In this document: positions 9,388 to 22,790 of the stretch, piece by piece | How positions within the stretch are numbered: the stretch's first letter is position 1 | Layout of the letters: the number at the start of each line of letters is the position of its first letter | Source: Chloroflexota bacterium | GTDB taxonomy: Bacteria; Chloroflexota; Anaerolineae; Promineifilales; Promineifilaceae | Assembly: GCA_013112725.1 (NCBI GenBank) | Contig: JABFFZ010000018.1 | Location: 1 to 64,000 of the forward strand | Length of the DNA stretch: 64,000 nucleotides | Direction: 5' to 3' | Notes under the pieces: model-generated | What the model was told of the DNA's origin: nothing | The model's database searches: none | Seen by the model: only the letters and a program-made list of their open reading frames with translations | Made by a program: the position numbers and the translations under genes

Positions 9388-9659
9388 AGGTTATTGATCC
9401 GCGAAGGACGCGAAGGGGCGCGGAGGTTTGCTGTGCTTATTTCGTGTCATTCGTGTAATTTGTGGTAATGAATGAGCGGGATTGTACCATAAAACAGATG
9501 TTCTGTAGAGGGGGGGGGCAACGAATGGGAGTAAGGAGGGAAACATGGGTGAAGACACGGCCGTAACCCGGCCCAAACACCCAACAGACAGTCAGATAAA
9601 CCCATTCGTCATCTACGAGCCAACCACCCGAACACATAACCACCTGAGCACTTAAACAC

Positions 9660-9688
9660 TTGACACCCATATCCCCATCTGTCATACT
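9660..9688 (+). promoter_or_regulatory. Promoter of the FadR-type regulator gene
   Basis: TTGACA (9660-9665) and CATACT (9683-9688) are separated by exactly 17 bp. Transcription would begin at about 9695, inside the operator at 9695-9711. Confidence 0.6.
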
Positions 9689-9694
9689 ACGGCC

Positions 9695-9711
9695 AACTGG
9701 TCAGACCACTT
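9695..9711 (+). promoter_or_regulatory. FadR-type operator
   Basis: AACTGGTCAGACCACTT matches the E. coli FadR consensus core TGGTCNGACCA exactly and is palindromic at 7 of 8 paired positions. It starts 6 bp after the -10 box and ends 16 bp before the regulator's ATG, the expected place for autorepression. This is a motif match without binding data. Confidence 0.7.
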
Positions 9712-9727
9712 ACCAGAAGGATGTTGG

Positions 9728-10453
9728 ATGAACAACTGGACAGCCCCACAGCGGCCAAACTCTTACGCCGAACACATGTTGATCAATGCCATCCTGGATG
9801 GCGATTTTCCGCCGGGCAGCAGCCTGCCGGGGGAGCGTGACCTGGCGGTGCAGTTGGGCGTCACCCGGCCCACGCTGCGCGAAGCCATTCAACGGCTGGC
9901 GCGGGATGGCTGGTTGACGGTGCAGCAGGGGAAGGCTACGGCCGTGAACAACATCTGGCAAGACGGCGGCCTCAACGTCCTCAGTGGGCTGGTGCGGCAC
10001 AGCGAACATTTGCCGCCCGGTTTTATCACCAACCTGCTGGAAGTGCGGCTGCACCTGGCCCCGGTTTACACGGCGCGGGCGGTGGCGTTGGCGGCCGAGG
10101 TGCTGCACGAATTTTTGCAAAGCCAGGCCATTTTGCCCGATGAAGCCGCCGCCTTCGCCCATTTTGACTGGCAATTACACCGCCTGCTCACCCAACAGTG
10201 TGGCAATCCCATTTACGGCCTCATTTTGAACGGGTTTACCGATTTTTATGAACAGTTGGCGCGGCTCTATTTTGCCCCGCACGCTTCCCGCGCCGCGTCA
10301 CGGGCCTACTATGCGGAATTGGCTACGGCCGTTGCCCAACAGGACCCCACCCTGGCCGAAGCCGTCACCCGCCGGGCGATGCAAGAGAGTATAGAGTTGT
10401 GGCAGGAGGCCAGGGCGATTAGTGAGCAGTGGGCAGTGGGCAGTGAGCGGTGA
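9728..10453 (+). CDS. fadR: FadR-type (GntR family) fatty-acid-responsive regulator
   Basis: This 241-residue protein has an N-terminal winged helix (about 10-75; LPGERDLAVQLGVTRPTLRE, then RLARDGWLTVQQGK) and an all-helical C-terminal domain. Both halves resemble gammaproteobacterial FadR rather than generic FCD regulators. The acyl-CoA-binding half keeps NPIYGLILNG and the RLYFAPHASR segment that parallels E. coli RHYFANPEAR. Family knowledge predicts DNA release on binding long-chain acyl-CoA. A FadR-like operator overlaps its own promoter. The last residues (EQWAVGSER) are coded by a GTGGGCA-type repeat that has invaded the 3' end. It precedes two lipid genes on the same strand. Confidence 0.82.
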   Translation: MNNWTAPQRPNSYAEHMLINAILDGDFPPGSSLPGERDLAVQLGVTRPTLREAIQRLARDGWLTVQQGKATAVNNIWQDGGLNVLSGLVRHSEHLPPGFITNLLEVRLHLAPVYTARAVALAAEVLHEFLQSQAILPDEAAAFAHFDWQLHRLLTQQCGNPIYGLILNGFTDFYEQLARLYFAPHASRAASRAYYAELATAVAQQDPTLAEAVTRRAMQESIELWQEARAISEQWAVGSER

Positions 10454-10472
10454 ACTCGCTGCTCACTGACAT
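10420..10472. repeat. AGTGGGC/AGTGAGC repeat with inverted tail
   Basis: Tandem GAGCAGTG and GGCAGTG units are followed by the inverse GCTGCTCACTG. The repeat covers the last codons and the stop of the FadR-type gene. Related units occur at 44700-44760 and inside the methyltransferase gene near 42020-42060. Confidence 0.7.
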
Positions 10473-10483
10473 AAGGAGAAACC

Positions 10484-12076
10484 ATGAGACGATGGAACGG
10501 CTGGGGGGATGATACAAAGGATTATCCGGTGCCGGAGAGCGCCGCGCCGTTAATTGCCAAATGGGTGGGCAACGGCCGTCCACCGCAAGATGTGACGTTG
10601 GATGAAGCGGTCACGGCCGTGCCGCCTTCCCGCCTGCCTGATCATCCGCTGGTAAACAAGGACGCCGAGATCCGTCTGCGCCACGCGCGCGGCCAAAGCC
10701 TGCCGGACTTGATCGCCCTGCGCAGCGGGCAAATTGACGCCTTTCCCGATGGCGTGGCCTTGCCCACCAGCGAAGAGGAGGTGCAGGCGCTCATTCAGTT
10801 TGCGGCGGCAGTAGGGGCGAAACTGATCCCCTACGGCGGCGGCACCAGCGTTGTCGGCCATATCAATCCCCTGGCCGGTGATGCCCCCGTGTTAACGGTC
10901 AATTTGCAGCGGCTCAATCAGCTACAGCAACTGGACGAAACCAGCCATCTGGCCACATTTGGCGCGGGCATACAGGGGCCAGACCTGGAAGCGCGGCTGC
11001 GGGCGCATGGTTACACTCTGGGGCACTTTCCCCAATCGTTTGAGCTTTCTACACTGGGTGGGTGGATCGCTACCCGTTCCAGTGGGCAGCAGTCGTTGGG
11101 CTACGGCCGTATCGAGAGCCTCTTCGCCGGGGGACATTTAATTTCGCCAGCCGGGACATTGGAACTGCTGCCCTTTCCCGCTTCTGCCGCCGGGCCGGAT
11201 TTGCGCCAGATAGTGTTGGGCAGTGAGGGGCGATTGGGCATCATTACCGCCGCCACCGTGCGCATCACACCGCTGCCAGAGCGAGAGGAGTTTCACGCCA
11301 TCTTTTTCCCCGCCTTTGAGCAGGGCATGGCGGCAGCGCGCCAATTGGTGCAGGCGGGGCTGCCCCTTTCGATGTTAAGGTTGAGCACGGCCGTGGAAAC
11401 CGCCACCACCCTGGCCATGGCCGGGCACGAACGGCTCATCGGCGCCGTCGAAAAGTGGCTCACCTTTCGCGGCGCAGACGACGAGAAATGTATGCTGCTG
11501 CTTGGTTTCACCGGCGCAGACAGGATGGTGAAGGCCAGCCGCAAAGCGGCGCTGGACATCACCGGGGCGCATAAAGGGGTGCATATGGGGCAGCAGTTTG
11601 GCAAACAGTGGCACAAAGGGCGCTTCCGTACCCCCTACCTGCGCAACACGTTGTGGGAAATGGGGTACGCGGTAGATACGTTGGAAACGGCCGTGTCCTG
11701 GCATCACGTCCCCGAACTCATGGGCAGCATCGAAACCGCCATCCGCGCCGCCGCCGCCCCATTTGACGAACGGGTCCACGTCTTTACCCACCTCTCCCAT
11801 CTTTACACAGACGGGGCCAGCATTTACACCACCTACCTCTTTCGGTTGGGGCAGACGCCCGATGATACCATGCAGCAGTGGCAGGCGATGAAAACAGCCG
11901 CCAGCCAGGCCATCGTCGCCGGGCAGGGCACCATCAGCCACCAGCACGGCGTGGGGCGGGACCATGCCCCCTATCTGCCCGCCGAAAAGGGCGAACTGGG
12001 CATGGCCGTCCTCGCCGATCTGGCGCAGCGGTTTGATCCGCAGGGGATGATGAATCCGGGGAAGTTGTTAGGGTAA
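10484..12076 (+). CDS. Alkylglycerone-phosphate synthase-like FAD enzyme
   Basis: The 530-residue product starts with RRWNGWGDDTKDYP, the hallmark opening of alkyl-DHAP synthases. It then has a PCMH-type FAD domain (about 88-270; YGGGTSVVGHINPL, STLGGWIATRSSGQQS) and a cap domain ending in SHLYTDGASIYTTY and ISHQHGVGRDHAPYL, the conserved histidine region of this family. Known members exchange the acyl chain of acyl-DHAP for a fatty alcohol and so create the ether bond of ether lipids. The next gene encodes glycerol-3-phosphate dehydrogenase and the preceding gene a FadR-type regulator, which supports a lipid role. The true substrate is not proven. An AAGGAG site precedes the ATG. Confidence 0.8.
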   Translation: MRRWNGWGDDTKDYPVPESAAPLIAKWVGNGRPPQDVTLDEAVTAVPPSRLPDHPLVNKDAEIRLRHARGQSLPDLIALRSGQIDAFPDGVALPTSEEEVQALIQFAAAVGAKLIPYGGGTSVVGHINPLAGDAPVLTVNLQRLNQLQQLDETSHLATFGAGIQGPDLEARLRAHGYTLGHFPQSFELSTLGGWIATRSSGQQSLGYGRIESLFAGGHLISPAGTLELLPFPASAAGPDLRQIVLGSEGRLGIITAATVRITPLPEREEFHAIFFPAFEQGMAAARQLVQAGLPLSMLRLSTAVETATTLAMAGHERLIGAVEKWLTFRGADDEKCMLLLGFTGADRMVKASRKAALDITGAHKGVHMGQQFGKQWHKGRFRTPYLRNTLWEMGYAVDTLETAVSWHHVPELMGSIETAIRAAAAPFDERVHVFTHLSHLYTDGASIYTTYLFRLGQTPDDTMQQWQAMKTAASQAIVAGQGTISHQHGVGRDHAPYLPAEKGELGMAVLADLAQRFDPQGMMNPGKLLG

Positions 12077-12085
12077 GAGGTTGCA

Positions 12086-12181
12086 AGTGGCGAGTGACGA
12101 GTGACGAGTGACGAGTGACGAGTGACGAGTGACGAGTGGCGAGGACGAGTGACGAGTGACGAGTGACGAGTGACGAGTGAC
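12086..12181. repeat. GTGACGA heptamer array (about 13 copies)
   Basis: Head-to-tail GAGTGAC units with one 1-bp-short unit in the middle fill the gap between the flavoenzyme gene and glpD. A short TTGCAACTTGCAAC repeat follows. The same unit is used at 5311-5490 and 62507-62602. Confidence 0.92.
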
Positions 12182-12231
12182 TACCTGCAATTTGCAACTT
12201 GCAACTTGTCACCAATGTGAGGAATCCAAAA

Positions 12232-13974
12232 ATGTGGGATGCAACATGGCGCGAAACGGCATGGGCGCAGCTTGACCAGGAATGGGACATGCTGATCATT
12301 GGTGGCGGCATTACCGGGGCCGGCATTTTCCGTGAGGCGGCGCGGCTGGGGCTGCGCGTGCTGCTGGTAGACCAGCATGATTTTGGCTGGGGCACCTCCA
12401 GCCGTTCCTCCAAATTTGTGCATGGGGGGCTGCGTTATTTGAAAGAAGGGCAACTTGGCCTGACGCGCAGCGCGGTGCTGGAACGGGAACAGTTGTTGGC
12501 CGATGCGCCGGGGTTGGTGGACCCCATTGGCTTCTTGCTGGCCACCTATCGCCGCGACAAAATTGGCCGCACGGTCTACCGCGCCGGCCTGGCGATTTAT
12601 GACTTGCTGGCGCTGCAATGGAGCCACCGCTACTACAGCCCGGCCGATTTTCAACTGTTAGCGCCGCACATTGAGGCGGAGGGGTTGAAGGGCGGCTTTC
12701 ATTACCAGGATGCGCAAACAGATGATGCCCGACTGGTGCTGCGGGTGCTTCAAGAAGGGGCGACTGACGGCCGTAGGCGTGCCATCCCGCTCAATTATGC
12801 TGCCGTCACCGACCTGCTGCGGGACGCAAACGGCCAGGTTTGTGGCGCAACGGTGCGCGACGAAGTGACCGGGCAAAGCCAACCGGTGCGGGCGCGGGCG
12901 GTGGTGAACGCCACCGGCAGTTGGGTGGACAGATTACGGCGGCAGGTGGGAGGGGAGGAAAAGATACGGCCGTTGCGCGGCAGCCATCTCATTTTTCCCG
13001 GCTGGCGGCTGCCGGTGGCCCAGGTCGTCACCTTTTTGCATCCGGTAGACCAGCGCCCCGTCATGGTCTTCCCCTGGGAAGGGGCGACGATGGTGGGTAC
13101 AACGGACGTGGATCATCCCCACGATGATCTGACCGAGCCGTGCATTTCCCCTGAAGAGGTGGCCTATCTGATGGCCGCCGTCACCGCCGAATTCCCCTCA
13201 TTGAACATTCAGTTGCGTGACGTGATCGCCACCCAGGCCGGGGTGCGCCCGGTCATTGGCACGGGCAAAGAAGACCCGTCTGAGGAGTCGCGGGAGCATG
13301 TGTTATGGTTGGAGGAGGGGCTGCTGACGGTGACGGGTGGTAAGCTGACCACCTTTCGCCTGATTGCCCATGATGCGCTGAAAGTATTGCACGGCCGTTT
13401 CCCCGATTGGCCGCCGCTGGACGAAAAAATCCCGGCGCTGACGCCAACCCCACCCGATCTCCTGGCCGATGTGCCGCTGGACAGCCACCTGCGCCGCCGT
13501 TTGTGCGGGCGCTACGGAGCGCTGGCGGCCGACCTGGTAGCCGCCGCCCAGGAAGGTGAACTGGACACCATCCCCGGCACGCGCTATGTCTGGGCGGAAC
13601 TACGCTGGGCGGCGCAGGCGGAGGGAGTGCAGCATTTGGAAGATTTATTGCTGCGGCGGCTGCGGCTGGGGCTGCTGCTGCCGGAAGGGGGGCGGGCGCA
13701 TCTGCCGCGCATCCGCGCTATTTGCCAGGCGGCGTTGGGGTGGAGCGACGGCCGTTGGCAAGATGAAGAAGCCGCTTACCTGGCGCTGTGGCAGCGCGCC
13801 TACAGTTTGCCGCCGCTGGAAACTATCCCCGACTGGCGGGCGATGTTGGCCCGGGTGGAAATGGACACGGCCGTGACCGTGCATCATCCCGCCCGCCGCA
13901 CCTGGGTGGCCGGGGTGTTGGTGGGGGCGGCGGTTGTGCTGACGGCCGTGTGGCTCTGGCGGCGCAAGCGTTAA
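12232..13974 (+). CDS. glpD: Glycerol-3-phosphate dehydrogenase with C-terminal membrane helix
   Basis: This FAD enzyme oxidises sn-glycerol-3-phosphate to dihydroxyacetone phosphate and passes electrons to the quinone pool. The Rossmann motif GGGITGAG lies at residues 24-31, followed by GTSSRSSKFVHGGLRYL, ATGSWVD, and TGGKLTTFR further on. I start it at ATG 12232, with TGAGGA 8 bases upstream. The 580-residue protein carries an unusual extra: its last 25 residues form a hydrophobic helix (VAGVLVGAAVVLTAVWLW) ending RRKR, a probable tail anchor. GlpD is normally a peripheral membrane protein without such a helix. DHAP produced here is the substrate class of the preceding enzyme's pathway. Confidence 0.92.
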   Translation: MWDATWRETAWAQLDQEWDMLIIGGGITGAGIFREAARLGLRVLLVDQHDFGWGTSSRSSKFVHGGLRYLKEGQLGLTRSAVLEREQLLADAPGLVDPIGFLLATYRRDKIGRTVYRAGLAIYDLLALQWSHRYYSPADFQLLAPHIEAEGLKGGFHYQDAQTDDARLVLRVLQEGATDGRRRAIPLNYAAVTDLLRDANGQVCGATVRDEVTGQSQPVRARAVVNATGSWVDRLRRQVGGEEKIRPLRGSHLIFPGWRLPVAQVVTFLHPVDQRPVMVFPWEGATMVGTTDVDHPHDDLTEPCISPEEVAYLMAAVTAEFPSLNIQLRDVIATQAGVRPVIGTGKEDPSEESREHVLWLEEGLLTVTGGKLTTFRLIAHDALKVLHGRFPDWPPLDEKIPALTPTPPDLLADVPLDSHLRRRLCGRYGALAADLVAAAQEGELDTIPGTRYVWAELRWAAQAEGVQHLEDLLLRRLRLGLLLPEGGRAHLPRIRAICQAALGWSDGRWQDEEAAYLALWQRAYSLPPLETIPDWRAMLARVEMDTAVTVHHPARRTWVAGVLVGAAVVLTAVWLWRRKR

Positions 13975-14202
13975 GCATACTCAATTCCCGGCGATTAAAA
14001 TCGCGGCTACAGAGGGCAAAGCCCACCTTCGTGGACTGGGTCCCAGTCGGCGAAGGCCGACTTTGCCTTCTGTTGGTGCAGATTTATCTGCCTCATTGAG
14101 GAATATGCAAGCACTCTGCGCAGAACTGTGAGAAACTCGCCGAACCGCTTTTCTCCGCTACAATAGGCCAAACCAGTGCAGGCATAATCACGGAGGCAAA
14201 AC
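13975..14202. repeat. Intergenic palindromes between glpD and the DGR target gene
   Basis: Several short inverted repeats follow each other, including GGCGATTAAAATCGC and TCGGCGAAGGCCGA. A GGAGG ribosome-binding site for the next gene lies at the right end. No gene is visible. The segment marks the left edge of the octamer-free DGR region. Confidence 0.5.
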
Positions 14203-17001
14203 ATGTCCAACCCAGACCCCCAACCCGACCAGAAACCCGGCATCTGGCAATCCATTCTGCAAGCAGCCGAAGGGCTGCCCAGAGAGCTACGCTTCATCGT
14301 TGTCTTTGGCGTTCTCCTGTCCATCCTCTTTATCGCCGGCCCCAACATTCCCAACAACCTGGTGCCCCTGCTCTACGTCCTCCTCATTGGCGGTATGGGG
14401 CTGTATATCTACGGCGAACACCAGATTTCTCAACGCCAAAAGGAAGAACACCGGCACAAAGAGAAACTCGAAGAGATCGTCAAACCACCGCCGCCCGTAA
14501 CCGTGCTGCCGGAGCCGCCGCCGCCTGCCGACCTGCAAGGCAACTATCTGCATGACCTGTTCATCCGGTGCGAATTTATCCCCATGGCCACCGTAGACCT
14601 GCGCGCCCAACGCACCCGTACTGCTCAGATCGCCTTACAAGCCATTTTCACTGCCCTGGATGTGGCCGATACCCGGCAGCAAGAGATGGGCCACGAGGCG
14701 ATGGGCCAAGAGGCAGCCATGCGCGGTGAAAAAGAGCGGCGTGAACCGGTGTTGGCCGCCATCAGCCGCCACCGCTATCTGGTGCTGTTGGGTCAGCCCG
14801 GCTCCGGCAAATCCACCCTGGTCAACTTCATCACCTATTGCCTGGCTGGCGATGGGTTGGGGTATGACAATATCAACGTTCCCCGCCTGAATGAAATCGG
14901 CTGGACGCTGCCCGGATTGCTGCCCGTGCGCGTTATCTTGCGCCAGTATGCCGCCCGCGGCCTGCCCCGGCAACAAACTCTGTGGCAATTCCTGACCGGC
15001 GAGCTACAAACAGCCGGATGGGGCGCTTATCAGGCAGAACTCAAGCAACATCTGGAGCGGCGCGGCGGTATTTTGCTGCTGGATGGCCTGGATGAGGTAC
15101 CTCAGGAAGATCAACGGCGGGAACAACTACGCCAGGCTGTTTTGACTTTTGTGCATGAGTTTCCCCAGGTGCGAGTGTTGGTCACCAGCCGGCCATATGC
15201 TTACACGGCCGATTGGGTCTTGCCCGGATTCACCCGCGCCGACCTGCTTGACTTTAGTCCTGAACAAATCAACCAATACATTGATAGCTGGTATGCTGTG
15301 GCCGGAGAATTGGATCCAGACCTGGGGGCGCAGCGCGCCGCCACGTATGCGGAGCGGCTCAAGCGCGAAATTGAGCATAAAGAGAACTTGGCCGAACTGG
15401 CGCCCCGTCCCCTGCTGTTGGCGCTGATGGTGTCGCTGCATCGCTGGCATCAGGGCGGTGGCCTGCCGGAAAAACGGGAAGAGTTGTATGACCAGAGTGT
15501 AGACCTGCTGCTGGAATTGTGGCAGCAGCCCAAACAGATAGACGACGAGCACGGGTCTCGTGAAGACGCCAGCGTTTTGAAACAGTTGGGCATCAGCCGG
15601 GACAGTTTGCGCGCCGCCCTCAGCCGGGTCGCTTTTGAGGCGCATAAGGATCAGCCCCGGCTGGAAGGCGTGGCTGATATTCCTGGCGGCCAGATAGCGG
15701 CCGCGCTCCATGATGCGCCTGGCCGCGATCCGGGCATCAAACCGGATGACATCATTGATTACATCCGGCGGCGCGCTGGATTGCTGGTGGAGCAAAGCGG
15801 CGCGGGGCAGGGTGTTTATGCCTTTCCCCATCGCACCTTTCAGGAGTACCTGGCGGCCTGCCATTTGTTTGGCCTGAGTACCTTTCCCAAAGAACTGGTG
15901 AGACTGGCCCGGCAAGACCCCCAACGCTGGCGCGAGGCGGTGCTGTTGGCCGCCGGACGCGCTAAAACGGAGGCACTGGTGTGGCAGTTGGTACAGGCGT
16001 TGTGCCCCCATGCGCTGCCGCCGGATCCGGCGCAGGTGGGGGAACAGGATTGGTGGGGGGCGTTTCTGGCGGGGCGGGTATTGTGGGATGCCGCTTTGTT
16101 TGAGACGGATGAGACGTATTGGCAGCCGGTGTTGGACAATGTGCGGGCGTGGCTGGTGGGGTTGATTGCGCAGGCGGCGCTGCCGCCGCTGGATCGGGCG
16201 GCGGCGGGCGAGGTGGCCGACCGGTTGGGCTACCTGCCGTCCGACCTGAACAGCTGGCTGCCCTGCCCCGGCTGTGCGGCTGACCCTTCGGCCGGCTCAG
16301 GGCCGGATTTGCTGGTGATGAAATACCCGGTGACCAATGCCCAGTTTGCCCTGTTTATGCAGGCGGGTGGCTATAAAAACAAAACCTATTGGGCGGCGGG
16401 ACGCTTTGGCGAGTGGGATGAACCGCGCTATTGGAATGATGCCCGTTTTGGCCGGGGGCGGCGAGGTTTTCCGGTGGTGGGCGTCTCCTGGTATGAGGCG
16501 TGTGCCTATGCCGCCTGGCTGACGGCGTTGCTGGCGCGGGCGCGGCTGGGGGAGACGCTGCCCGATGTTGAGCGGGCGCTGGTGGCTGATTTGCTGGCCG
16601 CCGGGGCCACAGAAGTGCGCTTGCCGGAAGATGCGGAATGGGTGAAAATAGCCGGTGGCGATAAAAATGACCGCTACCCGTGGGACCCGGTGGGCGGCCC
16701 GGCGACGAAAGAGGTTAACGCCATTTTGGAGCGGGCCAACACCAGCGAACTGGGTTGGGCACAGACAACGCCGGTTTACCAATACCCCGACGGGAAAAGC
16801 GTCCCTTATGGATTGATGGATATGGCCGGAAATGTTTGGGAATGGGTTGGTGATGGCCGGGCGCTGCGCGGCGGCTCGTGGGACGACGGTCAGCTCGGCG
16901 CGCGCGTCGCCTCCCGCTACGACTACCTCTTCCCGTTCAACTGGGACGACAGTATCGGTTTTCGGGTGGTCGCCCCCGTCCTTCTGGCTTCTGGTTTCTG
17001 A
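14203..17001 (+). CDS. DGR target: membrane-anchored NACHT-FGE/C-lectin protein
   Basis: This 932-residue protein has two membrane helices (about 29-46 and 52-70), a proline-rich linker, and a NACHT/STAND NTPase with Walker A GQPGSGKST (197-205), Walker B LLLDGLDEVP (D294, D297, E298) and VLVTSRP. A helical region follows, then a formylglycine-generating-enzyme-like (C-type-lectin fold) domain from about 680. The final domain lacks the catalytic cysteines of true FGE and ends in the variable repeat at residues 885-925 (GGSW...IGFRVV). The two helices predict both termini in the cytoplasm, so the diversified face is intracellular. GGAGG precedes the ATG. The reverse transcriptase, Avd and template repeat follow on the same strand. 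Confidence 0.93.
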   Translation: MSNPDPQPDQKPGIWQSILQAAEGLPRELRFIVVFGVLLSILFIAGPNIPNNLVPLLYVLLIGGMGLYIYGEHQISQRQKEEHRHKEKLEEIVKPPPPVTVLPEPPPPADLQGNYLHDLFIRCEFIPMATVDLRAQRTRTAQIALQAIFTALDVADTRQQEMGHEAMGQEAAMRGEKERREPVLAAISRHRYLVLLGQPGSGKSTLVNFITYCLAGDGLGYDNINVPRLNEIGWTLPGLLPVRVILRQYAARGLPRQQTLWQFLTGELQTAGWGAYQAELKQHLERRGGILLLDGLDEVPQEDQRREQLRQAVLTFVHEFPQVRVLVTSRPYAYTADWVLPGFTRADLLDFSPEQINQYIDSWYAVAGELDPDLGAQRAATYAERLKREIEHKENLAELAPRPLLLALMVSLHRWHQGGGLPEKREELYDQSVDLLLELWQQPKQIDDEHGSREDASVLKQLGISRDSLRAALSRVAFEAHKDQPRLEGVADIPGGQIAAALHDAPGRDPGIKPDDIIDYIRRRAGLLVEQSGAGQGVYAFPHRTFQEYLAACHLFGLSTFPKELVRLARQDPQRWREAVLLAAGRAKTEALVWQLVQALCPHALPPDPAQVGEQDWWGAFLAGRVLWDAALFETDETYWQPVLDNVRAWLVGLIAQAALPPLDRAAAGEVADRLGYLPSDLNSWLPCPGCAADPSAGSGPDLLVMKYPVTNAQFALFMQAGGYKNKTYWAAGRFGEWDEPRYWNDARFGRGRRGFPVVGVSWYEACAYAAWLTALLARARLGETLPDVERALVADLLAAGATEVRLPEDAEWVKIAGGDKNDRYPWDPVGGPATKEVNAILERANTSELGWAQTTPVYQYPDGKSVPYGLMDMAGNVWEWVGDGRALRGGSWDDGQLGARVASRYDYLFPFNWDDSIGFRVVAPVLLASGF
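16854..16978 (+). repeat. DGR variable repeat (VR)
   Basis: These 125 bp align without gaps to the template repeat at 18635-18759. Within 16882-16952 there are 20 differences, and each one falls on a template adenine (9 A to G, 9 A to T, 2 A to C). The non-adenine template bases in that core are all unchanged. Fourteen codons are altered. The last five bases at the right edge add one more A to C change. The VR ends about 20 bp before the stop codon of the NACHT-FGE gene. Confidence 0.97.
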
Positions 17002-17039
17002 ACTACTGGTTTCTGGCAATACTGATTTCTGTGGGGGGT

Positions 17040-17060
17040 GCAGGGGGGCTTCCCCCCTGC
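17040..17060 (+). promoter_or_regulatory. GC-rich hairpin downstream of VR
   Basis: GCAGGGGGG (17040-17048), a 3-nt loop and CCCCCCTGC (17052-17060) form a perfect 9-bp stem about 60 bp past the VR. In characterised DGRs a GC-rich hairpin/cruciform just after the VR promotes retrohoming; this one may serve that role or act as a transcription attenuator. A second perfect 9-bp palindrome (GGGCAAGAT-GT-ATCTTGCCC) follows at 17071-17090, just before the RT gene. Confidence 0.65.
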
Positions 17061-17099
17061 CCAAATTGTAGGGCAAGATGTATCTTGCCCGAAGAGTAC

Positions 17100-18152
17100 A
17101 TGAAAACATACCGTAACCTCTACCCGCAAATTTGTGACTGGAACAACCTTTACCTGGCTTACCACAAAGCGCGTAAAGGCAAACGCAGCCGCCCACCGGC
17201 CGCCGCCTTTGAATTTCACCAGGAAGAACAGTTGCACGATCTCTGCCACGAACTGGAGAGCAAAACCTACCAGCCCGGCCCTTACCATTCCTTTTACATC
17301 CACGAACCCAAACGCCGCCTCATTTCCGCCGCCCCTTTCCGTGACCGCGTTGTCCACCACGCTCTCTGCAACGTCATTGAACCCATCTTTGAACGCACCT
17401 TTATCTACGATTCCTACGCCAACCGGGTGGGCAAAGGCACCCACCGCGCCATAGACCGCTGCCAGGAATATGCGCGCCGCTTTGCTTACGTGCTGCCCTG
17501 CGATTTGCGCCAGTTTTTCCCCAGTATTGACCACGCCATCTTGCGCCACACCCTGGCCCATAAAATCGCCGACGCCGATACACTATGGCTGGTAGACCGC
17601 ATTCTGAACAGCGGCGTCGGCGTTTTGTCTGATCAGTATGACATGGTCTGGTTTCCCGGCGATGATTTGCTGGCGGCCACCCGTCCGCGGGGTTTGCCCA
17701 TCGGCAACCTGACCAGCCAGTTCTGGGCCAACTGTTACCTGAACCCCTTTGATCATTTTGTTAAGCGTGAACTGAAATGCGCCGGGTATGTGCGGTATGT
17801 GGATGATATGCTGCTCTTTGCCGATGATAAAGAGACCCTCTGGCAGTGGCATAAATCCCTGACGCAAAAACTGGCTGAACTGCGCCTGACCATTCACCCC
17901 ACAGCACAGCCGCAGCCGGTTAGCGAAGGCATCCCCTTTCTTGGTTTTGTCGTTTACCCCGATCACCGCCGCCTGAAACGGCGCAAGGGGATTCATTACC
18001 GGCGGCGGCTCAAAAAGCTGCTGGCGGAATACCAACGGGGCGAACGCTCGACGGAACAGGTGCAGGCGTCCATTCGCGGCTGGATCAACCATGTGCGCTA
18101 CGCCGACACCTGGGGTTTGCGCCGGGCCATTCTGGCCGATGTCGTTCTGTAG
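17100..18152 (+). CDS. DGR reverse transcriptase
   Basis: The 350-residue enzyme copies the template RNA with adenine infidelity and drives replacement of the VR. It has the DGR-type RT motifs: LPCDLRQFFPSID with the first catalytic aspartate D135, LPIGNLTSQ (199-207, the SQ signature that separates DGR enzymes from group II intron and retron RTs), the catalytic YVDD box (233-236) and PFLGFVV. No maturase or endonuclease domain follows, which also rules out a group II intron protein. I chose ATG 17100, just after the hairpins; upstream in-frame codons lie inside the VR. Its TAG stop lies within a 12-bp palindrome. Confidence 0.96.
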   Translation: MKTYRNLYPQICDWNNLYLAYHKARKGKRSRPPAAAFEFHQEEQLHDLCHELESKTYQPGPYHSFYIHEPKRRLISAAPFRDRVVHHALCNVIEPIFERTFIYDSYANRVGKGTHRAIDRCQEYARRFAYVLPCDLRQFFPSIDHAILRHTLAHKIADADTLWLVDRILNSGVGVLSDQYDMVWFPGDDLLAATRPRGLPIGNLTSQFWANCYLNPFDHFVKRELKCAGYVRYVDDMLLFADDKETLWQWHKSLTQKLAELRLTIHPTAQPQPVSEGIPFLGFVVYPDHRRLKRRKGIHYRRRLKKLLAEYQRGERSTEQVQASIRGWINHVRYADTWGLRRAILADVVL

Positions 18153-18175
18153 GGCAATTTGCCAAATTGCCCTAC
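18149..18175. repeat. Perfect 12-bp palindrome between RT and avd
   Basis: GTAGGGCAATTT (18149-18160), loop GCC, AAATTGCCCTAC (18164-18175). It includes the RT stop codon and ends just before the Avd ribosome-binding site. It shares the TAGGGCAA core with the palindrome at 17071-17090. Confidence 0.85.
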
Positions 18176-18189
18176 GTGGAGTTATCCCT

Positions 18190-18531
18190 ATGCAGCAGTC
18201 ACCCATTTTCAGCAAGACGTATGATTTACTCACCTGGCTCATCCCGGCCACAACCAAATTCCCCCGCGAACACCGCTTTGTGCTGGCGCGGCACGTGCAG
18301 GAAGCGGCGCTGCGTTTTCAGGAGCAGTTGATCGAGGCGGCGCTTGGCCCTAAAACGGCGCAGTCCCAGGTGTTGGCGCGGGCGGATGTGAGTCTGGCTA
18401 AACTGCGTTTCTACCTGCGGTTGTGCCAGGATTTGCAGCTATTAACGCCGCGCCAGTACCGGCATGTTTCCGGCATGGTGGTGGAAATTGGGCGGTTGTT
18501 AGGCGGCTGGCAAAAGGTCGGTAGCCGGTAG
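18190..18531 (+). CDS. avd: DGR accessory variability determinant (Avd)
   Basis: This 113-residue basic, all-helical protein matches the bacterial Avd/four-helix-bundle family: FPREHRFVLARHVQEAALRF, then LAKLRFYLRLCQDLQLLTPR and the C-terminal IGRLLGGW. Avd forms a pentameric barrel that binds the RT and template RNA and is needed for mutagenic cDNA synthesis. GGAG at 18178-18181 lies 8 bases before the ATG, so I reject earlier in-frame starts inside the RT gene. The template repeat begins about 100 bp downstream. The last codons run into a CGGTTAT repeat. Confidence 0.93.
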   Translation: MQQSPIFSKTYDLLTWLIPATTKFPREHRFVLARHVQEAALRFQEQLIEAALGPKTAQSQVLARADVSLAKLRFYLRLCQDLQLLTPRQYRHVSGMVVEIGRLLGGWQKVGSR

Positions 18532-18534
18532 TCA

Positions 18535-18588
18535 GTTATCGGTAATCAGTAATCGGTTATCGGTTATCGGTTATCGGTGGGCCGATGG
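18535..18588. repeat. CGGTTAT heptamer array
   Basis: Tandem ATCGGTT units, some degenerate to ATCAGTA, lie between Avd and the template repeat. Matching units occur in the tRNA spacer at 30691-30728. Confidence 0.8.
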
Positions 18589-18634
18589 CTGACTACTGCT
18601 TATCGGCAGGTAGCAGTGGGGACAGGTCAACAGG

Positions 18635-18759
18635 TGGCCGGGCGCTGCGCGGCGGCTCGTGGAACAACAATCAGAACAACGCGCGCGTCGCCTCCCGCAA
18701 CGACAACAACAACCCGAACAACAGGAACAACAATATCGGTTTTCGGGTGGTCGCCCACG
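18635..18759 (+). repeat. DGR template repeat (TR)
   Basis: This is the invariant donor copy of the VR, offset by 1781 bp. Its core is built of 14 AAC/AAT codons plus one AGG in the target's reading frame, so random replacement of A can never create a stop at the AAY codons. Of the 32 adenines in 18663-18735, 20 differ in the VR. The flanks TGGCCGGGCG... and ATCGGTTTTCGGGTGG are unchanged and would serve as homology arms, the right one including the presumed IMH-like segment. Confidence 0.97.
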
Positions 18760-18961
18760 CCCTTCGTCCGCCACCGGCAGTGCGCCGGGTGGTCATAGAC
18801 GCGGCGCCGAGGTGGGGAATTTGCTAAAGTAATTCCATGAAGAAGGACGGCGTGATCTGTTCCTGGCCGGAGATAGCTCCGGGCACATATCAAAACCCCT
18901 GGCGGCCTGTGGTAGGGCATATCTATGCGTGACGCTTGCTGCCAGGGAATTTTTTTATGGC

Positions 18962-18990
18962 GTGGCCTGGGAATTGCATTCCCAGGCCAC
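18962..18990 (+). terminator. Strong hairpin closing the DGR region
   Basis: GTGGCCTGGGAAT, loop TGC and ATTCCCAGGCCAC form a perfect 13-bp stem, followed by a T-rich tail TATTTATTTT. It may terminate the template RNA or DGR transcript. It could also be another dispersed palindrome. Confidence 0.5.
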
Positions 18991-19006
18991 TATTTATTTT
19001 CAGGGC

Positions 19007-19035
19007 TTGACAAGTTTATAATTTGATGTTATATA
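19007..19035 (+). promoter_or_regulatory. Promoter of the marR gene
   Basis: A consensus TTGACA (19007-19012) and TATATA (19030-19035) are separated by 17 bp. The surrounding 60 bp are very AT-rich, unlike the rest of the window. Confidence 0.7.
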
Positions 19036-19062
19036 TCTTAATATCAAAATATATGATATTAA
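19023..19062. promoter_or_regulatory. Overlapping MarR operators
   Basis: Two inverted repeats with the same 9-7-9 layout overlap. TTGATGTTA (19023-19031) pairs with TAATATCAA (19039-19047) at 8 of 9 positions, and TTAATATCA (19038-19046) pairs perfectly with TGATATTAA (19054-19062). They cover the -10 box and the transcript start, as expected for MarR autorepression. Confidence 0.75.
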
Positions 19063-19072
19063 AAATAAAACG

Positions 19073-19522
19073 ATGAGTACACATTATCAAGGCACACCAG
19101 AAGAAATACGGGCGCTGGACAGCTATATTAAGCTGTCACGGGCGGCTGAGGCAGTTGGGCAGCGTATCAACGGCCATTTGCAGGCGTATGATCTGACGAC
19201 CAGCCAGTTTGGCGCGTTGGAGGCGCTCTATTTTCTGGGGCCGATGCAGTCCGGGCAGCTAGGCGAAAAGATTCTGAAGAGCAGCGGGAACATGACGCTG
19301 GTGATTGACAATCTGGAAAAGCGAGGTCTGGTGACACGCGAACGGCGGGTGGATGACCGGCGCTGTGTGGAAGTACACCTGACGGCCGTTGGCCGAACGT
19401 TAATAGAAACCATTTTACCGGATCATGTGGCCGGGGTGGTGGCAGCGTTTGGTGTGCTGACGGCCGTGGAACAGGAACAATTAGGTGCGTTGTGCCGCCA
19501 GCTTGGGCTGGCGCAGCGTTGA
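19073..19522 (+). CDS. MarR family regulator (MhqR-like)
   Basis: This 149-residue winged-helix protein has the family pattern TSQFGALEALYFLGP, SGQLGEKILKSSGNMTLVIDNLEKRGLV, then the wing RRVDDRRCVEVHLTAVGR. In Bacillus, the related MhqR represses glyoxalase-fold dioxygenases and an MhqD esterase and is released by quinones. The same set of genes follows here (19649, 20663, 21380). Cysteine C103-like positions might sense electrophiles, but that is inference. Its own promoter carries two overlapping palindromic operators. Confidence 0.85.
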   Translation: MSTHYQGTPEEIRALDSYIKLSRAAEAVGQRINGHLQAYDLTTSQFGALEALYFLGPMQSGQLGEKILKSSGNMTLVIDNLEKRGLVTRERRVDDRRCVEVHLTAVGRTLIETILPDHVAGVVAAFGVLTAVEQEQLGALCRQLGLAQR

Positions 19523-19582
19523 CAAGAATCAAAGATTGCGCAGATGACGCAGATTTTTTATCTGTGCCATCTGGTCGTAGTT

Positions 19583-19629
19583 GGCACGTTAGTGCCGTCA
19601 GAAGGCGATGAATCGCCTACTACAAACGT
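19583..19629. repeat. Dispersed palindromic element (AGGCGAT-GA-ATCGCCT)
   Basis: GGCACGTTAGTGCC is followed by AGGCGAT-GA-ATCGCCT and ACTACAAACG. Nearly the same element in reverse lies at 63963-64000, and a relative with longer stems at 43000-43044. It sits between the marR gene and its first target. Confidence 0.75.
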
Positions 19630-19648
19630 ATTTTCAGAGGAGACAACC

Positions 19649-20590
19649 ATGCAACCGATTCAAGGTTTACACCATATCACGGCCGTAGCGGGCGACCCGC
19701 AGGCCAACATCAACTTTTATCATCAGGTGTTAGGGCAGCGGTTCGTCAAAAAAACGGTTAATTTTGACGATCCGGGTACCTACCATTTCTATTTTGCGGA
19801 TGAAGTAGGCACACCGGGCACCGTTCTCACCTTCTTCCCCTGGCAGCATATGCGCCGGGGTGAACGAGGGAACGGGGAGACGACGGCCGTTGCCTACACC
19901 ATCGCCCCGGACTCCATTGGTTACTGGCAGGAACGGCTGGCGGCCCATGGCGTGGTGGTGGGGGAGGTGCAGACGCGCTTTGGTACGGCCGTGTTGCCCT
20001 TCCATGATCCCGACGGGATGCCGCTGGAACTAATTGCCAGCGGCGAAAAAGGGAACTTTCGCCATTGGGCCAATGGGCCGATCCCGGAAGCACACGCCCT
20101 GCGCGGTTTTCACGGCGTCACCTTGTGGCTGAGCGCGGTGGAGCCAACCGCGGCGGTGCTGACGGAGCAAATGGGTTACACCTTTGTGGGGCAGGAAGGC
20201 AGCCGGTACCGGTATCGCGGCGCTTCGGCCGATGGTGGACTGTATGTGGACATTTTGCACCGCCCAGGGCAGCGGCGCGGCAGCTTTGGCGCCGGCTCCA
20301 TTCACCACATCGCCTTCCGCACGGTGGATGACAGCGAGCAGTTGGAATATCTGCAAACGCTGCGGCAGGCCGGTTTGCAGGTGACGCCGGTGCAAGACCG
20401 GCAGTATTTCCACTCCATCTATTTCCGCGAACCGGGCGGCGTGTTGTTTGAAGTTGCCACCGATGCACCCGGCTTTTTGATTGACGAAACGGTAGAAGAG
20501 TTAGGTTCACACTTGAAACTGCCCCCCTGGTTTGAACAACACCGGGCGGAGATTGAGCGTGCGCTGCCGCCGGTGACGGTGAATGGGTAA
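19649..20590 (+). CDS. Ring-cleaving dioxygenase, glyoxalase fold (MhqO/MhqA-like)
   Basis: This 313-residue protein has two tandem vicinal-oxygen-chelate modules. The first begins GLHHITAVAGDPQANINFYH with the family's VKKTVNFDDPGTYHFYFADE; the second contains GSIHHIAFRT and ends with YFREPGGVLFEVATDAPGF. Metal ligands H8 (GLHH), H214-like (IHHIA) and the late glutamate are present. Relatives are putative extradiol hydroquinone dioxygenases. AGAGGAG precedes the ATG at 19649, which rules out the longer frame. It is the first gene after the MhqR-like regulator. Confidence 0.86.
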   Translation: MQPIQGLHHITAVAGDPQANINFYHQVLGQRFVKKTVNFDDPGTYHFYFADEVGTPGTVLTFFPWQHMRRGERGNGETTAVAYTIAPDSIGYWQERLAAHGVVVGEVQTRFGTAVLPFHDPDGMPLELIASGEKGNFRHWANGPIPEAHALRGFHGVTLWLSAVEPTAAVLTEQMGYTFVGQEGSRYRYRGASADGGLYVDILHRPGQRRGSFGAGSIHHIAFRTVDDSEQLEYLQTLRQAGLQVTPVQDRQYFHSIYFREPGGVLFEVATDAPGFLIDETVEELGSHLKLPPWFEQHRAEIERALPPVTVNG

Positions 20591-22008: not shown

Positions 22009-22061
22009 TTGCCAGCGCATAGGCAAGTAGTAGTGGATATGAACCATGAAGGAAGGTGATA

Positions 22062-22790
22062 ATGGTAGAGATGATTATTACCGGGGTGGTGGAAGTGGAG
22101 CCACCGGATGTTTCCCATATTGTAACCGAGGACGATACGCCGGTGGATAACATATTCTCGGCCAAACAACAGCGGCTGCTGGTGCGTTCGCTTTATGCGT
22201 CCTGGCAGACGGACCGCAAGTTTGTGGCTGACAGCAACGTGGGCGTTTTTGTCACGCCGTATCGGCCGGCGATTGTGCCCGATATGTTTTTGAGCCTGGA
22301 TGTGGAAATTGCCGAAGATTGGTTTGCTCAGGAGCATCGCTCTTATTTCATCTGGGAGTTTGGCAAACCGCCAGACCTGGTGGTGGAGATTGTGTCCAAC
22401 AAAAAAGGGGGCGAAAATGGTAAGAAACTGGATGATTATGCCCGGATGAACGTCTGGTACTATGCCATTTACGATCCGCAATTATTGATTCAGAACCAGG
22501 TATTGCAGTTGTACGAATTGCGGGCGGACGGGTATGTGCCGGTGAAAAATTTGTATATGGAAAAGATCGGCCTGGGGTTGATGTTGTGGGACGGCCGTTA
22601 TGAAAGCCGTGATGGGCAGTGGCTGCGTTGGTGTGATAAAGAGGGTCATCTGTTGCTAACGGGGGAAGAAGCAGCGATTGCGGAGCGGGGCCGCGCCGAA
22701 GCGGAGCGGGATCGCGCCGAAAGGGAAATGAGACGCGCTGCGGCGCTGGCGGAGAAGCTGCGGGCGCTGGGCGTTGACCCTGATGCGTAG
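22062..22790 (+). CDS. Uma2 (DUF820) family nuclease-fold protein
   Basis: The 242-residue protein has the PD-(D/E)xK-like Uma2 core: VGVFVTPYRPAIVPDMFLSLD, then PDLVVEIVSNKKGGENGKKL and YARMNVWYYAIYDP, where the D, E and K are the predicted metal and catalytic residues. A charged helical C-terminus (about 205-240) contains repeated AERGRAEAERDRAE units. Uma2 genes are strikingly numerous in cyanobacteria and Chloroflexi, and their biological role is unknown. ATG 22062 follows GGAAGGTG. Confidence 0.85.
   Translation: MVEMIITGVVEVEPPDVSHIVTEDDTPVDNIFSAKQQRLLVRSLYASWQTDRKFVADSNVGVFVTPYRPAIVPDMFLSLDVEIAEDWFAQEHRSYFIWEFGKPPDLVVEIVSNKKGGENGKKLDDYARMNVWYYAIYDPQLLIQNQVLQLYELRADGYVPVKNLYMEKIGLGLMLWDGRYESRDGQWLRWCDKEGHLLLTGEEAAIAERGRAEAERDRAEREMRRAAALAEKLRALGVDPDA

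What the first reader, a model, noticed from the sequence alone, without database searches (positions are those of the whole stretch)
14203..18759. Complete diversity-generating retroelement targeting a NACHT protein
Target gene with a 3' variable repeat, DGR-type reverse transcriptase (LPIGNLTSQ, YVDD), Avd and template repeat lie in order on one strand within 4.6 kb. Every part needed for mutagenic retrohoming is present and uninterrupted. DGRs with STAND/NACHT targets are known as a class in other bacteria, but this host and this architecture (two membrane helices, NACHT, FGE/C-lectin) deserve a full description.
Basis: partly seen in the sequence, partly recalled or inferred. Interest (0 to 1): 0.95.

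Follow-up and report, generated by a model that had tools for sequence, protein, structure and literature searches.

The report
Self-mutating NLR-like receptor in Chloroflexota
A Chloroflexota bacterium carries a complete gene-rewriting retroelement beside a predicted membrane-anchored relative of animal NLR immune receptors; in a sister species the receptor gene's tip differs at 18 DNA sites, every one a template adenine, so the element has likely been reshaping what this probable defence sensor binds.

Summary
Observation confirmed, reading supported. Window 14203-18765 holds a complete diversity-generating retroelement (DGR): NACHT-FGE target with 3' variable repeat (VR), RT, Avd and template repeat (TR). 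VR and TR differ at 21 of 123 positions, all TR adenines. G005 has lost most of RT, and Avd and TR. Three other same-genus genomes show the site without the cassette.

Outside training, 27 of 37 loci with a known TR have it, all 27 lying 18-148 nt 3' of the TR; 94.5% of cells pair against 65.9% shuffled.

The kind is known: Dore et al. 2024 (PMC10907252) describe DGR-diversified NACHT/C-lectin sensors. A defence role is inferred, not shown. New member of a known kind, with a template-RNA family I did not find described.

The parts
14203..17001 (+). DGR target gene, 932 aa: two predicted N-terminal membrane helices, NACHT NTPase, helical region, C-terminal FGE/C-type-lectin-fold domain
   Evidence: ORF; Pfam; model mf7e281a3a279 (pLDDT 86.7, pTM 0.79); fold matches; 54 of the 73 rows of A1 (query included) have two or more hydrophobic segments in the first 130 aa
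14293..14415 (+). two predicted membrane helices (residues 31-49 and 53-71)
   Evidence: Kyte-Doolittle window 19, threshold 1.6; helices in the model
14773..15294 (+). NACHT domain (residues 191-364); Walker A GQPGSGKST from residue 197
   Evidence: Pfam PF05729 E 2.5e-11; motif position; fold matches to NOD2 and NLRC4
16306..16971 (+). FGE-sulfatase (C-type lectin fold) domain, residues 702-923
16854..16976 (+). variable repeat (VR)
   Evidence: 21 of 21 mismatches to TR at TR adenines; 18 of 18 differences from the G005 VR at TR adenines
16953..16975 (+). constant 3' end of VR, identical to TR: candidate IMH
   Evidence: sequence; IMH role inferred
17040..17060 (+). GC hairpin after VR (9-bp stem, CTT loop)
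   Evidence: core GGGGGGCTTCCCCCC found three times in the 5.5-Mb assembly, once after each of its three VRs; 38 of 76 VR sites across loci have a GC hairpin, 14 of 76 TR sites, 1 of 76 shuffled
17100..18152 (+). DGR reverse transcriptase, 350 aa
   Evidence: phrog_1423 E 3.9e-127; PDB 8ub7 E 9e-64; BPP-1 brt 36% over 97%
18190..18531 (+). Avd accessory protein, 113 aa
   Evidence: NF033474 105.3 bits over the 80-bit cut-off; bAvd E 2e-21; phrog_3206 'Avd protein of DGR'
18635..18757 (+). template repeat (TR); homology to VR continues to 18765
   Evidence: 33 adenines in 123; 18 variable codons, no stop reachable, 5.6e18 protein variants
18771..18959 (+). structured RNA 3' of TR: P0 18771-18815, P1 18865-18884, ATA 18887-18889, P2 18897-18947, T run 18950-18956; predicted to bind RT-Avd and prime cDNA
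   Evidence: R1 match 18808-18959, 69.7 bits, E 3.3e-14 in the window (the window is a training row, and the model aligns its P2 poorly); P0, P1 and P2 in the window's own MFE fold, z -3.21; covariation
13975..14108 (.). dispersed inverted-repeat element at the 5' edge of the cassette

Best explanation
A complete DGR is predicted to rewrite the ligand-binding tip of a predicted membrane-anchored NACHT protein, which likely works as an NLR-type intracellular defence sensor. Steps. (1) Shown: TR, VR, RT and Avd are present, and VR differences, both from the TR (over 16854-16976) and between two species, sit at TR adenines only. (2) Inferred from BPP-1: RT-Avd binds the folded RNA 3' of the TR, primes cDNA there and misincorporates opposite adenines. 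(3) Inferred: the cDNA replaces the VR, helped by the GC hairpin after it. (4) Predicted: the rewritten surface is on a C-type-lectin-fold domain that lacks the FGE cysteine pair, so it binds and does not catalyse. (5) Inferred: ligand binding switches the NACHT NTPase and oligomerises the protein, and the paired N-terminal membrane helices act as effector or anchor. (6) Inferred: the outcome is membrane damage or a death signal that stops an invader. Loss of RT, Avd and TR in G005 would freeze the receptor in its current specificity.
For: A-directed VR/TR mismatches 21 of 21. Two other DGRs in the same genome: C75 9 of 9 mismatches at A; C30 12 of 14 with 8 gap columns. VR difference between G000 and G005: 18 of 18 at A, p 6e-13. 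Codon comparison: VR 20.5 nonsynonymous and 0.5 synonymous changes in 42 codons; NACHT 0 and 3 in 190; all but VR dN/dS 0.32. RT nearest to DGR RTs; Avd over its cut-off. Post-TR RNA: 16 pairs, 89.6% of cells paired against 68.7% shuffled; outside training 94.5% against 65.9%. In 52 family genomes it tracks the RT: 15 of 22 genomes with RT have it, 3 of 30 without, Fisher p 1.9e-5. NACHT part folds like NOD2/NLRC4, C-terminal part like the solved DGR target TvpA. FGE cysteines absent. 49 of 53 long DGR targets are NACHT+FGE.
Against: No expression, cDNA, retrohoming or phage data exist here. Only one close relative was available for the VR test. No defence model fits the target well (PADLOC mad8 18.9 bits, E 2e-4; NCBIfam EruA 25.2 of 1000 bits). 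Of the eight neighbouring genes scanned, none looks like a partner effector: regulators, FAD enzymes, glyoxalases, a hydrolase, and a Uma2-type gene with a weak PADLOC hit. The RNA models do not find the BPP-1 spacer or the phage and cyanobacterial DGRs tried, and R1 misses 10 of 37 known-TR loci outside training, among them a second DGR of the same genus (L064, G003:C38), so the priming role rests on position and structure. Effector activity of the two helices is a guess; they may only be an anchor.
Confidence: 0.75

Rival explanations
1. The DGR is real but the receptor is not anti-viral: it recognises kin or environmental ligands, and the NACHT switch drives aggregation, regulation or incompatibility.
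For: Dore et al. discuss kin recognition as an alternative (PMC10907252, section 19 read). No known effector domain is fused, no defence model fits well, and no effector was seen among eight neighbours.
Against: Hydropathy and charge suggest that NACHT and FGE are cytoplasmic (inference), which suits an intracellular ligand. Homologues of the same NACHT-FGE scaffold carry other N-terminal domains such as TIR or cyclase (precomputed Pfam accessions; their names recalled), a make-up usual in defence STANDs (established knowledge).
Confidence: 0.25
2. The element is a fossil: the VR was diversified long ago and the locus no longer works.
For: DGRs here decay: G005 lost most of RT, and Avd and TR; only RT fragments are found in G002 and G004. 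Activity was not measured.
Against: In the window all parts are open and intact. Non-adenine VR positions stayed identical in the two species (0 of 90) although the 300 nt at 16500-16799 differ at 13-15% of sites, which suggests rewriting after or near the split.
Confidence: 0.15
3. TR and VR are an ordinary duplicated FGE segment drifting apart, with no retroelement mechanism.
For: The genome has many FGE domains (16 matches).
Against: 21 of 21 mismatches at adenines in one copy, p 1.4e-15; 18 of 18 between species; adjacent RT, Avd and TR-linked RNA.
Confidence: 0.01

Closest known systems
Clade 5 (5D) cellular DGRs with STAND/NACHT-C-lectin targets, e.g. Thiohalocapsa PB-PSB1 DGR 3 (PMC10907252; whole text parts 1-3 of 9, section 11 part 1 of 2, sections 14 and 19 read)
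   Same: DGR RT and accessory protein, TR/VR, NACHT plus FGE/C-lectin target, several DGRs per genome, some targets predicted to have membrane regions
   Different: Chloroflexota host; single target at this locus; two N-terminal helices; a sister species with an RT-deleted locus and relatives with cassette-free sites; post-TR RNA family defined here. RT clade placement was not tested by a tree
Bordetella phage BPP-1 DGR (mtd-avd-TR-brt)
   Same: adenine mutagenesis logic, Avd, hairpin after VR, spacer after TR; RT 36% identical
   Different: order here is target-RT-Avd-TR-RNA; hairpin has a CTT loop and starts 55 nt after the repeat ends, against 4-nt GRNA loops 4-34 bp away in phage DGRs (PMC3240598, passages); R1 and R2 do not match the BPP-1 spacer
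Bacterial NACHT / Avs anti-phage STAND proteins and animal NLRs (NOD2, NLRC4)
   Same: N-terminal part, NTPase, C-terminal sensor layout; NACHT fold match
   Different: sensor is a DGR-diversified C-type-lectin fold, not repeats; putative effector is two membrane helices; anti-phage activity untested
Treponema denticola TvpA (2y3c), a solved DGR target
   Different: PMC10907252 calls the solved T. denticola target an outer membrane lipoprotein; this one is fused to NACHT and predicted cytoplasmic

Membership tests
Diversity-generating retroelement | TR/VR pair with mismatches confined to TR adenines | tested here: met
   21 of 21 over 123 nt; between species 18 of 18
Diversity-generating retroelement | DGR-type reverse transcriptase | tested here: met
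   8ub7 E 9e-64 (recalled as BPP-1 DGR RT) against group II intron RT 8.7e-27; BPP-1 brt 36% over 97%; IGNLTSQ motif (recalled as DGR-typical). phrog_1423 is named only 'Reverse transcriptase'. No tree was built
Diversity-generating retroelement | accessory protein Avd | tested here: met
   NF033474 over cut-off
Diversity-generating retroelement | VR in a C-type-lectin-fold target | tested here: met
Diversity-generating retroelement | hairpin 3' of VR | tested here: met
   17040-17060; 15-mer core found only after the three VRs in the assembly
Diversity-generating retroelement | mutagenic cDNA synthesis and retrohoming | not testable with these tools
   needs a bench assay or population reads
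Clade 5/5D STAND-NACHT DGRs (Dore et al. 2024) | NACHT/STAND domain fused to diversified C-lectin domain | tested here: met
Clade 5/5D STAND-NACHT DGRs (Dore et al. 2024) | RT falls in clade 5D | not tested
Clade 5/5D STAND-NACHT DGRs (Dore et al. 2024) | several DGR loci in one genome | tested here: met
   three RT loci C18, C30, C75
Clade 5/5D STAND-NACHT DGRs (Dore et al. 2024) | multicellular host | not testable with these tools
   unnamed assembly; a same-genus contig (G003:C221, match 89-1111) has the length (60,657) and match position of JAHBVI010000030.1, an Anaerolineae MAG
BPP-1-type spacer RNA | structured RNA directly 3' of TR | tested here: met
BPP-1-type spacer RNA | sequence/structure model shared with the BPP-1 spacer | tested here: not met
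   R1 and R2 find nothing at the BPP-1 spacer; short motif likeness by eye only
Anti-phage NACHT/STAND protein | NACHT NTPase with Walker A | tested here: met
   PF05729; GQPGSGKST at residue 197
Anti-phage NACHT/STAND protein | known N-terminal effector | tested here: inconclusive
   two predicted membrane helices, no named effector
Anti-phage NACHT/STAND protein | phage protection | not testable with these tools
   bench assay
Formylglycine-generating enzyme | active-site cysteine pair | tested here: not met
   T. curvata FGE 5nxl has GGSFLCHESYCNRY where the target profile has its RGGS region; the target there has GGSWDDGQLGARVASRY, inside the VR; that this pair is catalytic is recalled
Group II intron / retron RT | RT scores over the curated family cut-off | tested here: not met
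   TIGR04416 139.8 of 300 bits; NF038233 53.9 of 235 bits

The most novel reading that the evidence does not exclude
This lineage runs anticipatory adaptive immunity: membrane-bound bacterial NLRs whose ligand surface is continually rewritten from an RNA carrying its own conserved docking and priming module. That module is an undescribed RNA family spread over several phyla, and lineages can lock in a useful receptor by deleting the RT, Avd and TR while keeping the receptor gene, as G005 has.
Probability: 0.45. Interest if true: 0.88.

Novelty: new member of a known kind. Interest (0 to 1): 0.62.

Why it matters
The function of DGRs in free-living bacteria is open. This locus offers a natural set for testing it: an intact element, a sister species with the same receptor but without most of the RT and without Avd and TR, and relatives with the site but no cassette. 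The RNA model marks template RNAs directly (at 11 of 13 matched loci where the repeat search had failed it sits after an AAC-rich stretch), names residues to mutate in a priming assay, and gives a search handle for orphan TRs.

Tried and rejected
Rejected: FGE enzyme (cysteines absent); group II intron or retron RT; plain duplication. Trans targets of this TR in the held assembly (83% complete): none seen; the other TR-like hits C56, C55, C27 and C75 have 71-76% identity, and the first three carry a 3-nt gap and non-adenine mismatches. Homology of the post-TR RNA with the BPP-1 spacer: not detected by R1 or R2; R1 finds nothing in two phage and two cyanobacterial plasmid DGR stretches. Rfam: no family over its cut-off (window; 18500-19050, best isrO 18.9 of 42 bits). 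PDB by sequence for residues 1-689: none at E 0.01. Phage RTs: best 39% among the 20 listed of 160 records, all 160 under 60%; one IMG/VR contig at 58%.

Caveats on counts. R1 was trained on 27 loci including the window; the 93 searched sources were mostly chosen because they encode this RT. 64 of them had a known TR: 27 training, 37 not; of the 37, 27 had a match at E 0.01 and 10 had not (L064, L092, L103, L113, L120, L121, L122, L130, L142, L166), four of the ten only with weaker E. The 29 family matches include training rows (G000:C18, G000:C30 and probably G008:C162 = L093). In one search, 76 VR sites were counted, some loci with several. One search scanned 87 named entries, some the same locus twice (L031 and L031rc; L063 and L100), and missed C30, found by blastn. 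For A3, 27 of 66 entries had no motif match and were left out, 5 more (L124, L115, L141, L100, L163) were dropped, and I took 27 of the remaining 34. The alignment used was fitted to the model.

Papers: PMC10907252 as listed under Closest known systems; PMC3240598, PMC12875486, PMC7159879, PMC8195603 passages only; PMC10053308 and PMC7517822 term searches only. That the RNA family is not described rests in an open-licence library (one search listed 15 of 655 papers); other papers on the BPP-1 spacer were not seen.
Full report
What is there. The cassette lies between a FAD-dependent oxidoreductase gene with a glycerophosphate-oxidase C-terminal domain (12199-13974) and a MarR-family gene (19073-19522). 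On the + strand: target 14203-17001 with VR at its 3' end, RT 17100-18152, Avd 18190-18531, TR 18635-18757. Pfam finds NACHT and FGE-sulfatase in the target, RVT_1 in the RT and bAvd in Avd. PHROGs calls the RT 'Reverse transcriptase' and Avd 'Avd protein of DGR'; NCBIfam names Avd, and its best RT model, group II maturase, stays under its cut-off. Among solved structures the RT is nearest to 8ub7 (E 9e-64; recalled as the BPP-1 DGR RT), well ahead of group II intron RTs. Over 123 nt VR and TR differ at 21 places, all adenines in the TR. The TR is rich in AAC/AAT codons: 18 codons can vary, no stop is reachable, and 5.6e18 proteins are possible. Eight neighbouring genes scanned are ordinary (regulators, FAD enzymes, glyoxalases, a hydrolase, a Uma2-type gene with one weak PADLOC hit).

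Natural test of diversification. Genome G005, same genus, has the orthologous locus on contig C400 (93.6% identical over 9646-17230, 98.0% over 18990-20276). Its VR and the window's differ at 18 of 123 positions; all 18 are TR adenines and none of 90 other positions differs (p 6e-13). At 6.4% general divergence zero changes in 90 would have p 0.0025. Codon counts: 20.5 nonsynonymous and 0.5 synonymous in the VR; 0 and 3 in NACHT; dN/dS 0.32 outside the VR. G005 keeps a 937-aa target, but its RT is cut after about 45 codons, and Avd and TR are gone; no fuller RT and no match to the TR-linked RNA is found elsewhere in that 95% complete assembly. Two further TR-like hits in G005 (C420, C379) are VR-like FGE ends, not AAC-rich templates. 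It looks like a receptor fixed after diversification. An assembly error at the junction, or a TR in the missing 5%, cannot be excluded.

Cassette gain or loss. Between the places aligned to 13970 and 19006 of the window, G004 has 74 nt, G002 323 nt and G003 311 nt, the latter two including a relative of the dispersed repeat. So in three relatives the whole cassette is absent from the same site. Its 5' edge starts with a dispersed inverted repeat (13975-14108) found in many copies in five of six same-genus genomes. Identity between G000 and G005 is patchy: 97-100% over 13950-16050, 81-99% from there to the VR, 87-99% in the gene upstream; recombination is likely, but high-identity tracts also occur elsewhere.

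Three DGRs in one genome. RT loci are C18 (window), C30 (66% identical) and C75 (58-61% in two pieces of one frame). All have A-directed repeats: C75 9 of 9 mismatches, C30 12 of 14 with 8 gap columns. The C30 target is also a two-helix NACHT-FGE protein by prediction. After each VR stands GGGGGGCTTCCCCCC, and this 15-mer occurs nowhere else in the assembly (3 matches, reversed-pattern control 0). Across loci, 38 of 76 VR sites have a perfect GC hairpin of at least 7 bp within 170 nt, against 14 of 76 TR sites and 1 of 76 shuffled; so half of the VR sites show none by this strict rule. Guo et al. (PMC3240598, passages) report such hairpins for phage DGRs with 4-nt GRNA loops, so the feature is known; the CTT loop and larger distance differ.

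A conserved RNA after the TR. Sequences 3' of TRs share ..CTGTTCCTGGCCG-hairpin-CGGGCAAATAnnAA-long stem. In A3 (27 sequences) RNAalifold gives 11 pairs, each with compensatory changes. For 16 named pairs 89.6% of cells pair, against 68.7% shuffled (0 of 500 reach it); covariation 0.550 against 0.184; slid controls at most 0.194. Model R1 gave 67 matches at E up to 0.01, one in each of 67 of 93 sources. Of 37 non-training loci with a known TR, 27 have a match and 10 have not; all 27 lie 18-148 nt 3' of the TR on the same strand. Of 13 further matches where no TR/VR pair had been called, 11 have an AAC-rich stretch upstream, against 3.4% of 805 random windows. In these 40, 94.5% of cells pair against 65.9% shuffled (the alignment was fitted to the model and leans to it). 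In six same-genus genomes R1 finds 3 in G000 (its three DGRs; C75 weak, E 0.03), 3 in G003 (not at its C38 DGR), 1 in G002, 0 in the rest. In 52 family genomes 22 have the RT (E 1e-40) and 18 the RNA (E 0.01), 15 both; Fisher p 1.9e-5; 21 of 29 RNA matches lie within 1 kb of an RT match. There stricter filters were used, so weak matches such as C75 are missed. In the window, the minimum-energy fold has P0, P1 and P2 with a T run after P2 (z -3.21). No Rfam family reaches its cut-off. In BPP-1 the spacer after TR folds, recruits bRT-Avd and primes cDNA from an internal adenine (PMC12875486, passage); position and structure suggest the same job here, but R1 and R2 do not match the BPP-1 spacer. 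Matches come from records named as Chloroflexota, KSB1, Nitrospirales, Acidobacteria, Accumulibacter, Thiothrix and others; MAG names were not verified.

Judgement. The DGR reading is close to certain. The immune reading is the most likely function (about 0.6), and follows Dore et al. 2024. The locus itself is a new member of a known kind; the added value is the two-species test, the RT-less sister, the cassette-free sites and the RNA family.

Noticed in passing
G000:C55:29155-29259 and G000:C27:28581-28685 (L004, L005); G005:C420:1332-1436 and C379:358-422 (L087, L089): FGE C-termini of one type (VLRGGSW...ARAA.R...VGFRVVVRRPP) in two species look like VRs of one missing TR: constant parts alike, differences mostly at codons where TR18 has AAC; no matching TR was seen.
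   Followed up: partly
G000:C56:5020-5122 (L003): An FGE gene ends in an unmutated TR-like AAC-rich segment (GGSWNNNDNNVRAANRNNN), perhaps a freshly reset VR or a TR relic.
   Followed up: partly
window 17065-17099 versus L060: The short hairpin between VR and RT is of a different repeat type in G005 although the flanks are alike, as if swapped.
   Followed up: partly
window 9750-17230: Patchwork identity between G000 and G005: tracts of 97-100% (9750-10349, 12150-12599, 13950-16050) beside tracts of 81-93%.
   Followed up: partly
window 19575-19643: Second dispersed short repeat with many copies across the genus.
   Followed up: no
G002:C31:25373-25532: Post-TR RNA beside an AAC-rich TR-like stretch, with no full RT match in that assembly: candidate orphan template.
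   Followed up: partly
G003:C226:46869-47491: RT fragments, one with a stop, beside two RNA-model matches: likely a decayed DGR.
   Followed up: no
L090 (IMGVR_UViG_3300029624_000205): A contig filed as viral carries a related DGR with TR/VR, RNA match and a NACHT-FGE target; could be bacterial sequence.
   Followed up: partly
L031 (G000:C30): RT lies on the opposite strand to target, Avd, TR and RNA, so the template RNA is likely transcribed apart from the RT.
   Followed up: partly
window 18606-18634: A motif like GTGGGGACAGG recurs just 5' of TR in several of the eight loci printed; role unknown, perhaps where cDNA synthesis stops.
   Followed up: no
window 22056-22790: A Uma2-type gene (PF05685) with a weak PADLOC hit (PDC-S03, 23.9 bits) about 3 kb downstream.
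   Followed up: no
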